From the NCBI GenBank assembly GCA_021414365.1, contig JAIOOR010000012.1, forward strand, positions 1 through 42,132: 42,132 nucleotides of DNA. Direction: 5' to 3'. The notes under the pieces were generated by a model. It was given only the letters and a program-made list of their open reading frames with translations. It did no database searches and was not told the origin of the DNA. The stretch is from Nitrosarchaeum sp. (GTDB lineage: Archaea > Thermoproteota > Nitrososphaeria > Nitrososphaerales > Nitrosopumilaceae). Position numbers and translations under genes: made by a program. Positions 8,121 to 10,243 of this stretch are shown piece by piece (position 1 is the stretch's first letter; each line of letters starts with the position of its first letter).

Positions 8121-9074
8121 ATGTTAGTTCAACAATCTAGTCTCAAAGAAGAAATCATGCGTCTGAAAAAAGAAAAAGACGTAGTTATTCTGGCTCATAA
8201 TTATCAAATTCCAGACGTTCAAGATGTCGCAGATTTTACTGGAGACTCGTTAGGATTATCAAGGCAAGCTGCCAAAGTATCTCAAAAAACAATTCTGTTT
8301 TGCGGTGTCCACTTTATGGCAGAGACTGCAGCAATTATCTCACCTGACAAAAAAGTTTTGATTCCTGACTTGCAAGCAGGATGTTCGCTTTCTGATTCAA
8401 TTAATGTAGATGAGCTGAGAAACTGGAAAAAGCAGCATCCTAACGCAATTGCAGTAGGTTATGTAAATACAACTGCAGAGATAAAATCAGAACTAGATTA
8501 TTGTTGCACATCAGCCAACGCTGTAAATGTAGTCAATGCAATTCCAGCTGATAAGGAAATTTTGTTTTTGCCTGACATGTTTTTGGGCTCTTATGTTGCT
8601 AAAGTTACTGGCAGAAAAAACATGTTCATATGGGCAGGTGAGTGCCACGTTCATGCAGGAATCAAACCTGAAGACATTACAAAAAAATTAGATTCACTCA
8701 AAGACGCAGAATTTCTAATTCATCCTGAATGCAGCTGCACCACTCCAATGATGTACGATGCAGCATCTGGAAGTTTTGATAATAACAAAGTTTCAATTCT
8801 ATCTACTGAAGGAATGCTAAATCATGTAAATAACTCAAAGGCCAAGAATTTCGTAGTTGCAACTGAGACTGGAATCTTGTACAAAATGAGACAGCAGAAT
8901 CCAGGAAAAACATTCATCCCAGCATCTGAAAAAGCAGAATGTCAATACATGAAGATGATCACACTGGACAAAGTCTACAACGCACTGGTCCAAGAAAAAA
9001 ATCAAGTTGTAGTGCCAAAAGAGATTGCAGACAAGGCAAGACTGGCAATAGAGCGAATGCTTGCAATTAGCTAA
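8121..9074 (+). CDS. nadA: Quinolinate synthase
   Basis: This 317-residue protein carries the NadA signatures: AHNYQIPDVQDVADFTGDSL near the N terminus, CGVHFMAETA, the cluster cysteines in YCCTSANA, WAGECHVHAG and EKAECQYM, and HPECSCTTP. NadA is a [4Fe-4S] enzyme condensing iminoaspartate with dihydroxyacetone phosphate to quinolinate. It lies just downstream of nadX, which makes the iminoaspartate; nadC, the next enzyme, is at 16728-17546. It starts at ATG after a TATA box with almost no leader. The length is typical for the short archaeal NadA type. Confidence 0.96.
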   Translation: MLVQQSSLKEEIMRLKKEKDVVILAHNYQIPDVQDVADFTGDSLGLSRQAAKVSQKTILFCGVHFMAETAAIISPDKKVLIPDLQAGCSLSDSINVDELRNWKKQHPNAIAVGYVNTTAEIKSELDYCCTSANAVNVVNAIPADKEILFLPDMFLGSYVAKVTGRKNMFIWAGECHVHAGIKPEDITKKLDSLKDAEFLIHPECSCTTPMMYDAASGSFDNNKVSILSTEGMLNHVNNSKAKNFVVATETGILYKMRQQNPGKTFIPASEKAECQYMKMITLDKVYNALVQEKNQVVVPKEIADKARLAIERMLAIS

Positions 9075-9110
9075 TCATCACTGTATGTGTATCTTGATTA
9101 TCAAATAATA

Positions 9111-9228
9111 ATGCAGAAGCATATCTAGGGAAATCACCCCCTGTGTCTTAGGCAGAAATGAAAACTAGAATTGAGGATATGTGGGAACCTGCGTTTTCCC
9201 TTTGGAGTAGATATACTTGCTTCTGCAT
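9111..9228 (+). ncRNA. Candidate structured RNA, rod-like, about 118 nt
   Basis: This 371-base gap after nadA has no credible ORF but holds a nested structure. ATGCAGAAGCA (9111-9121) pairs perfectly with TGCTTCTGCAT (9218-9228). Inside it, TATCTA (9122-9127) pairs with TAGATA (9208-9213), and GGGAAA (9128-9133) pairs with TTTCCC (9195-9200). That gives 23 base pairs in three consecutive helices with one-sided bulges TACT (9214-9217) and TTTGGAG (9201-9207). The 61-base centre is less clearly paired. A T-rich stretch follows at 9233-9245, consistent with plus-strand termination. It lacks recognisable 5S, SRP, RNase P, tRNA or C/D box signatures. Strand and function are uncertain. I see nothing else in 9246-9445. 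Confidence 0.55.
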
Positions 9229-9445
9229 TGGTATATTTTTTTGATTTTATTATTTAGGTGATGCTTAACATTGTTAATCTTTTAATGGGTTTTTTATAAT
9301 TCTAAAAATGCAAAAATACACCGAGACGCAAAATGATCTAGAAATTATAAAAATCATTTCAGTTTATTTGAAGCGAAGATAGTTTTAGAAAATCAGTGTT
9401 GAAAATTGTATATTCGATTATATGCAATATCTGATGAGATAATTT

Positions 9446-10243
9446 ATGGTAAACCAAGTCATTTTAATTGCAATTATGATTGGAGTCTTTTTTGCAGGAC
9501 TTGGAATTGGATTTGCAGTACTTCAGTCTTATAATCAGCCTAATTTTGTAACAATGACTCCACAACAGATGCAACAAATGATGAGCAATCCCCAATTGAT
9601 GGCACAATGGCATCAAACTATGATGACCAATCCACAAGCAATGAATCAGTGGATGAATACTGTGGCAAATAATCCGAATCTAATGAATCAGTGGATGGGA
9701 AAAGTAATGGATGATCCGCAATTAAGACAGCAAATGTATGGCATGATGTTTCAAAATAGGCAATTCATGCAAAACATGATGAATAACACCCAATTTCAAA
9801 ATCAGTGGATGAATCCAGATGTTATGGGCAAAAACATGATGGGTTCTAACATGATGTATTATGGCATGATGGAACGTGGTGATGTGGCGATGGGATTTGA
9901 TCAAACTAAGATCAAACATAATTTTGTAGCCACAGCTACAGGCGGAGAAATTACAATAACTGCATTAGACGCAAATGATGTCACAACTATATCTGAGATT
10001 AGAAACCATGTGGCAGATATTCAAAATGAGTTTGCACAAGGCAATTTCGAAAAACCATTTTTCATACATGCTCAAGTTGTTCCGGGCACTCAAGTTATGA
10101 CTGCAAAAAAAGACTTGATACAATATTCCACAAGACAGATTGAAGGTGGGGATGTTTTAATTCTGACTACAAGTGATCCTGAGTTATTGGATGCAATTAA
10201 ACAATTCATGGACTTTCAGTCCACTCAACACATGGGTCGTTAG
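9446..10243 (+). CDS. Methionine-rich repeat membrane protein, possibly metal-binding
   Basis: This 265-residue protein has a single N-terminal membrane segment (about residues 4-26). A methionine/asparagine/glutamine-rich region at 37-150 follows, with 27 Met in 114 residues. Within it a 14-residue unit repeats from residue 47: SNPQLMAQWHQTMM, TNPQAMNQWMNTVA, NNPNLMNQWMGKVM, DDPQLRQQMYGMMF, then decaying copies. The C-terminal domain (about 155-262) is a compact alpha/beta region with ITITALDANDVTTISEIRNHV and a later LTTSDPELLDAIKQFM. Clustered methionines commonly bind Cu(I), so an extracytoplasmic copper-handling role is plausible in a copper-rich ammonia oxidiser, but this is inference; the NP repeats also resemble STI1-type protein-binding repeats. 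A single-gene unit is likely, with palindromes downstream. Confidence 0.72.
   Translation: MVNQVILIAIMIGVFFAGLGIGFAVLQSYNQPNFVTMTPQQMQQMMSNPQLMAQWHQTMMTNPQAMNQWMNTVANNPNLMNQWMGKVMDDPQLRQQMYGMMFQNRQFMQNMMNNTQFQNQWMNPDVMGKNMMGSNMMYYGMMERGDVAMGFDQTKIKHNFVATATGGEITITALDANDVTTISEIRNHVADIQNEFAQGNFEKPFFIHAQVVPGTQVMTAKKDLIQYSTRQIEGGDVLILTTSDPELLDAIKQFMDFQSTQHMGR

What the first reader, a model, noticed from the sequence alone, without database searches (positions are those of the whole stretch)
9111..9228. Unassigned rod-like structured RNA after nadA
Three consecutive helices (9111-9121 with 9218-9228; 9122-9127 with 9208-9213; 9128-9133 with 9195-9200) give 23 base pairs in a non-coding gap, followed by a T-rich stretch. 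The pairing is far better than expected for AT-rich intergenic DNA and I cannot match it to 5S, SRP, RNase P, tRNA or C/D RNA. The asymmetrical bulges may hold a protein-binding or kink-turn-like element.
Basis: partly seen in the sequence, partly recalled or inferred. Interest (0 to 1): 0.65.

Follow-up and report, generated by a model that had tools for sequence, protein, structure and literature searches.

The report
Regulated small RNA family in Nitrosarchaeum
The structure beside nadA is real, but it belongs to a small RNA read from the opposite strand: a previously uncatalogued, multi-copy RNA of ammonia-oxidizing archaea that sits under one conserved regulator-type promoter and may switch off a family of genes by covering their start codons.

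Summary
No Rfam family matches them. Relatives show a ~120-nt RNA transcribed from the MINUS strand (window 9229 to ~9105). The "T-rich stretch" is that RNA's promoter: palindrome TTAACAWTGTTAA plus a TATA-like CTAAATA box. All 37 copies inspected have it, with the palindrome ending 34-38 nt before the RNA start.

The RNA occurs in three genera of one family: three copies in this genome, and further copies in other Nitrosarchaeum genomes and two other genera. The inner helix covaries at all seven pairs; the outer helix is near-invariant but compensates C-G to U-A in divergent paralogs. A winged-helix (HTH_45) gene under the same palindrome co-occurs with the RNA: 21 of 21 genomes with a close ortholog have it. 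This is a regulon-embedded archaeal sRNA family.

The proposed mechanism is tentative. A conserved segment, CUAGUUUUCAUUU, pairs over 13-17 nt with the start codon of a repeated gene-start motif, AAATGAAAACTAGR (17 in this genome, reversed control 0). Motif numbers track RNA presence and an intact segment, but several RNA-bearing genomes lack such genes. No expression data were available.

The parts
9105..9229 (-). structured small RNA; 5' end about 9227-9229, 3' end about 9100-9109
   Evidence: covariance model R1 hit 9109-9229 minus, 114.7 bits; ends inferred from the conserved promoter and the T-rich flank; no RNA-seq
9218..9229 (-). 5' arm of outer helix A (AAUGCAGAAGCA)
   Evidence: pairs with 9110-9121; near-invariant in 32 sequences, with C-G to U-A compensation in 3 b-type paralogs
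9110..9121 (-). 3' arm of outer helix A (UGCUUCUGCAUU)
9208..9213 (-). 5' arm of helix B (UAUCUA); Nitrosarchaeum copies only
   Evidence: pairs with 9122-9127; invariant in genus g1, gapped or missing in genera g4 and g12
9122..9127 (-). 3' arm of helix B (UAGAUA)
9195..9200 (-). 5' arm of helix C (GGGAAA)
   Evidence: all 7 pairs of this helix show two-sided changes in 31 homologs
9128..9133 (-). 3' arm of helix C (UUUCCC)
9201..9207 (-). conserved asymmetric bulge CUCCAAA (part of conserved CUACUCCAA)
   Evidence: alignments A5 and A8
9156..9168 (-). conserved segment CUAGUUUUCAUUU, proposed pairing segment; its complement AAATGAAAACTAG covers an AUG
   Evidence: conservation in A8; complementarity to the repeated gene-start motif
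9141..9155 (-). conserved segment CUGCCUAAGACACAG with possible CUG/CAG mini-helix
   Evidence: alignment A5
9251..9257 (-). TATA-like box CTAAATA centred 26-27 nt upstream of the RNA start
   Evidence: same spacing in nearly all of 37 loci
9265..9277 (.). palindrome TTAACATTGTTAA, inferred regulator-binding site
   Evidence: 8 in own genome against 2 for the reversed control; 34-38 nt upstream of all 37 RNA copies
9097..9109 (-). T-rich 3' flank, inferred terminator (TTATTATTTGATA)
   Evidence: T-rich flank in most copies

Best explanation
A small non-coding RNA gene on the minus strand. Supported by sequence evidence: it is a ~105-135 nt RNA with an outer 10-12 bp helix whose sequence is almost fixed, an inner covarying helix, a variable hairpin region and conserved unpaired segments. 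It is switched by a dedicated promoter (palindrome plus TATA-like box). The same palindrome fronts a winged-helix regulator gene and its neighbours, and the RNA is inherited together with that regulator. Inferred: the winged-helix protein binds the palindrome, and the RNA is therefore made only under the condition it senses. Inferred and less certain: the RNA acts in trans. Its conserved CUAGUUUUCAUUU pairs with AAAUGAAAACUAG at the 5' ends of mRNAs for MKTR-type secreted or membrane proteins, covers the AUG and blocks translation initiation. The closed outer helix would protect and terminate the RNA. The regulated-RNA part alone I hold at about 0.9; the start-codon-masking step at about 0.35.
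For: Homologs: blastn finds two further own copies and copies in nine other congeneric genomes; the R1 model hits 30 of 250 family genomes in three genera, one of which (G170) I reject. Promoter: 37 of 37 copies have the palindrome (31 exact, 6 with one mismatch), ending 34-38 nt before the RNA start, 30 of them at exactly 37 nt. The same palindrome and box front the winged-helix gene, its divergent membrane-protein neighbour, a small zinc-ribbon gene and a MoxR operon. Structure: 45 two-sided compensatory cells against 13.4 in shuffles, 94.9% of cells paired; outer-helix compensation in paralogs. Co-inheritance: 21 of 21 genomes with the regulator at 74% identity or more have the RNA, and 113 of 115 others do not; the two exceptions carry a 58% copy about 2 kb from the RNA. 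Target idea: three of three non-self hits of the 19-nt complement (up to 3 mismatches) put the ATG on a start codon. AATGAAAACTAGR occurs 17 times in this genome and 23 in G205, with 0 for the reversed control. It is commoner in RNA-bearing genomes of genus g12 (mean 9.5 against 2.6, p = 5e-4) and with an intact segment (11.5 against 3.0, p = 0.004). Exact complement of 13-17 nt in six of seven RNAs tested, 0-1 of 1000 shuffles as good. A and C to G and U changes in several genera-g12 RNAs keep a wobble pair with AUG.
Against: No transcript, no regulator-binding data, no target data. Some RNA-bearing genomes have no or almost no motif genes (G001, G014, G003, G020, G069, G116, G138) and some RNA-free genomes have many (G120 21, G179 20, G151 12, G170 10). 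RNAs of genus g4 have changed segments without matching gene starts. The tests treat genomes as independent although they are related. The motif was picked because it matched the RNA. Predicted openness of the segment is only moderate and low in two of the best cases (0.17 in G165, 0.12 in G205). The b-type paralogs lack the segment.
Confidence: 0.42

Rival explanations
1. Same regulated RNA, but it works by binding a protein (for example as a decoy or cofactor for the winged-helix protein or the small zinc-ribbon protein encoded beside it), with no mRNA pairing.
For: The outer helix sequence is almost fixed although pairing alone would allow change, and the unpaired CUACUCCAA is conserved: both suit a protein contact. 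The RNA gene lies inside its own regulator locus in genera g4 and g12. Conserved segments persist in genomes without target candidates.
Against: Does not explain the 13-17 nt match to a repeated gene-start motif. No known RNA-binding domain was found among the neighbours.
Confidence: 0.35
2. A MITE-like mobile element: the outer helix is a terminal inverted repeat.
For: Perfect inverted ends, several copies per genome in different places.
Against: The promoter outside the 'ends' is conserved with the copies, inner helix C covaries, low copy number, synteny with the regulator locus in several genomes, end sequences change in compensated fashion.
Confidence: 0.03
3. A leaderless small-protein gene: every main-type copy begins AUGCAG(A/G).
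For: AUG sits at the inferred 5' end; a reading frame of 14-45 codons follows in main-type copies.
Against: Frames shift and stop at different places, the peptides are not conserved beyond the helix-encoded MQ(K/R), and the b-type paralogs read AUG-UAG.
Confidence: 0.05
4. One reading: an RNA on the + strand.
For: The helices form on either strand; T-runs follow on the right.
Against: The left flank on the + strand is not conserved, while the right flank is a conserved minus-strand promoter shared with protein genes; the model scores 114.6 bits minus against 21.1 bits plus.
Confidence: 0.03

Closest known systems
sRNA154 / sRNA41 of Methanosarcina mazei (intergenic archaeal sRNAs; PMC5867862)
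   Same: Intergenic, structured, conserved within a group of related archaea, conditionally expressed; sRNA154 and sRNA41 are reported to repress translation by masking ribosome-binding sites of mRNAs.
   Different: No sequence relation shown. Here the proposed site is the start codon rather than a ribosome-binding site, the RNA is bounded by one long closed helix, is multi-copy, and is tied to a palindrome-winged-helix module. Expression untested.
RyhB-type regulon sRNAs of bacteria (own knowledge)
   Same: Works like: a transcription factor's regulon includes an sRNA that extends the regulon to many mRNAs.
   Different: Archaeal promoter, no Hfq evidence, signal unknown, not homologous as far as tested.
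Yfr103 of marine picocyanobacteria (PMC5069720)
   Same: Multi-copy, strongly structured ncRNA with a palindromic element upstream of its start.
   Different: Cyanobacterial, 290-328 nt, single most abundant transcript; no sequence or structural relation shown.

Membership tests
Any Rfam 15 family (5S, SRP, RNase P, tRNA, C/D, riboswitches) | covariance-model score at or above the gathering threshold | tested here: not met
   0 matches in the window and in ten homologous loci; only sub-threshold chance matches at the site; no tRNA in the window
Conserved structured RNA | compensatory base changes in homologs | tested here: met
   caveat: alignment A7 was fitted to the structure
Archaeal intergenic trans-acting sRNA | own promoter and 3' end in an intergenic region | tested here: met
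   promoter anatomy in 37 of 37 copies, T-rich 3' flank in most; by sequence only
Archaeal intergenic trans-acting sRNA | transcript observed | not testable with these tools
   no RNA-seq available
Archaeal intergenic trans-acting sRNA | conserved base-pairing to target mRNAs | tested here: inconclusive
   strong complementarity and association, but exceptions and no covariation of RNA and target in genus g4
Kink-turn | 3-nt bulge next to tandem G-A pairs | tested here: not met
   strand opposite the bulges is fully paired, no G-A tandem
MITE | terminal inverted repeats forming the limits of conservation | tested here: not met
   conservation continues into the promoter
Cis-acting leader or riboswitch | lies in the 5' leader of a co-directional gene | tested here: not met
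   window copy is convergent with nadA; in other genera the downstream gene has its own palindrome promoter

The most novel reading that the evidence does not exclude
A transcription-factor-controlled sRNA of ammonia-oxidizing archaea recognises a start-codon tag (AAAATGAAAACTAGR) shared by a large, scattered and clustered set of secreted/membrane-protein genes, and so silences a whole laterally moving gene family at once.
Probability: 0.25. Interest if true: 0.75.

Novelty: new member of a known kind. Interest (0 to 1): 0.5.

Why it matters
I found no report of a regulated sRNA family in ammonia-oxidizing archaea in the open papers searched; this one comes with its promoter, its likely regulator and a concrete target hypothesis, so it can be tested directly in cultured Nitrosopumilaceae. 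If the start-codon pairing is right, it would show how archaea with short or absent mRNA leaders can use an sRNA, and how they hold a family of mobile secreted-protein genes in check.

Tried and rejected
Kink-turn: no G-A tandem. Cis-leader of nadA or of the Met-rich gene: wrong orientation. MITE: promoter co-conserved. Small protein: frames not conserved, b-type AUG-UAG. Model hits G170 (L087), G120 (L141), G109, G019 and G216 rejected: no palindrome promoter or in coding sequence; the G120 hit is the antisense of a gene-start motif. The first association test counted G120 as RNA-bearing and was redone. The genome contigs pattern was too strict and gave only two named records. Viral contigs hold no relative of the winged-helix protein. 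Literature searches found no description of this RNA; the 104-motif survey PMC2864571 does not mention thaumarchaea.

Full report
OBSERVATION. The three helices pair 11/11, 6/6 and 6/6 at the coordinates given, in a gap between nadA (8121-9074, +) and a Met-rich membrane-anchored protein gene (9446-10243, +). Rfam gives nothing at gathering score and only chance-level matches below it. As a whole the + strand is not an exceptional fold (z -1.66); the minus strand is better (z -2.82).

HOMOLOGS. The window is one whole contig of a 1.88 Mb genome. blastn found two further copies in that genome (C15, 79%; C4, 68%) and copies in nine other genomes of its genus. A covariance model of 12 copies (R1) then hit 30 of 250 genomes of the family, in genera g1, g4 and g12. 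A second model (R2) confirmed these and found no new genus with a convincing hit. An order-wide draw of 250 genomes gave hits only in the same three genera. Copies sit in several different, partly orthologous places.

STRAND AND PROMOTER. Once oriented, conservation runs past the structure on the right side of the window copy only. Read on the minus strand it is TTAACAWTGTTAA, then CTAAATA, then the RNA start. In 37 of 37 copies the palindrome is present (31 exact, 6 with one mismatch); its end lies 37 nt before UGCAG in 30 copies, 36 in four, 38 in two and 34 in one. The TATA-like box is centred 26-27 nt before the inferred start, the usual archaeal distance (own knowledge). The left flank is T-rich in most copies, as archaeal U-tract terminators are (PMC8716108). 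The RNA is therefore on the minus strand. This is inference from sequence; no transcript was seen.

STRUCTURE. On alignment A7 (31 sequences) 94.9% of cells pair, with 45 two-sided changes against 13.4 in shuffles; the seven pairs of helix C all show two-sided changes. A7 was fitted to the structure, and related sequences inflate such counts. An independent MAFFT alignment with three divergent b-type paralogs shows two-sided compensation in the outer helix, C-G to U-A in three sequences. Helix B is confined to Nitrosarchaeum. The single-sequence minimum-energy fold often differs in the middle region, so the interior is not settled.

NOT A PROTEIN. AUG stands at the inferred 5' end of main-type copies, but the frames shift and stop at different places and b-type copies read AUG-UAG.

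REGULON. The palindrome occurs 8 times in this genome, the reversed control twice. Three copies front the RNAs, one lies on the far side of the C4 copy, and the others front a winged-helix gene (HTH_45 above its cut-off), the adjacent membrane protein, a small zinc-ribbon gene and a MoxR operon. In six genomes of g4 and g12 most palindromes fall within one 2-4 kb locus containing winged-helix gene, membrane protein, small zinc-binding proteins, the RNA and, in several, DUF1059, cupredoxin-like and EMC3/TMCO1-like genes. Among 136 genomes of at least 90% completeness, all 21 with a winged-helix ortholog of 74% identity or more have the RNA, and of the 115 others only two do (G003, G010; each has a 58% copy about 2 kb from the RNA). 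That the winged-helix protein binds the palindrome is inferred.

MECHANISM. The conserved segment 5'-CUAGUUUUCAUUU-3' is complementary to AAATGAAAACTAG. A 19-nt pattern with up to three mismatches gave three non-self hits in this genome, each with the ATG on an ORF start: two MKTR(L/F)LI secreted proteins and one short ORF. AATGAAAACTAGR occurs 17 times in this genome and 23 in G205, with no reversed-control match in either; one of the 17 is the RNA itself. The sites are mostly gene starts, often clustered. Exact complementarity is 13-17 nt in six of seven RNAs tested and 10 nt in G205, rarely reached by shuffles. Pairing of the segment with these starts (-15 to -20 kcal/mol) lies at or beyond the best of 46 background starts (mean -8.4, minimum -15.7). 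Site numbers go with RNA presence in g12 and with an intact segment. Against this: related genomes are not independent, the motif was chosen because it matched, several carriers lack such genes, several non-carriers have many, and genus g4 shows no matching change. I therefore offer start-codon masking as the leading but unproved mechanism, with protein binding close behind.

VERDICT. A new, uncatalogued member of a known kind: a regulon-embedded small RNA.

Noticed in passing
own genome C22, C25, C12, C11 (L146 and L106-L108) and many relatives: A repeated gene-start motif AAAATGAAAACTAGRCTTTTGATAAT heads many unrelated secreted/membrane-protein ORFs (MKTRLLIIIG...), often clustered and sometimes truncated after a few codons, as if a movable gene cassette start.
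   Followed up: partly
L080:2658-2775, L082:867-992 (-), L085:331-449 (-), L148:1093-1204: Divergent second type of the RNA (AAUGUAGAAGUCA...UGGCUUCUACAUU in three; L148 copy not inspected in detail) under the same palindrome promoter, near the regulator locus in L080, L082 and L085.
   Followed up: partly
L149 (G125:C1:41010-41097): What looks like a decayed copy: the 3' half of the RNA is intact, the 5' half and promoter are lost.
   Followed up: no
own genome C21:7500-13000 (L144): The palindrome-flanked winged-helix/membrane-protein/zinc-ribbon locus; in this genome no RNA copy was found inside it, unlike in relatives.
   Followed up: yes
window 9278-9446: The Met-rich protein gene (9446-10243, +) is divergent from the RNA and shares the palindrome interval; it could be under the same regulator.
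   Followed up: no
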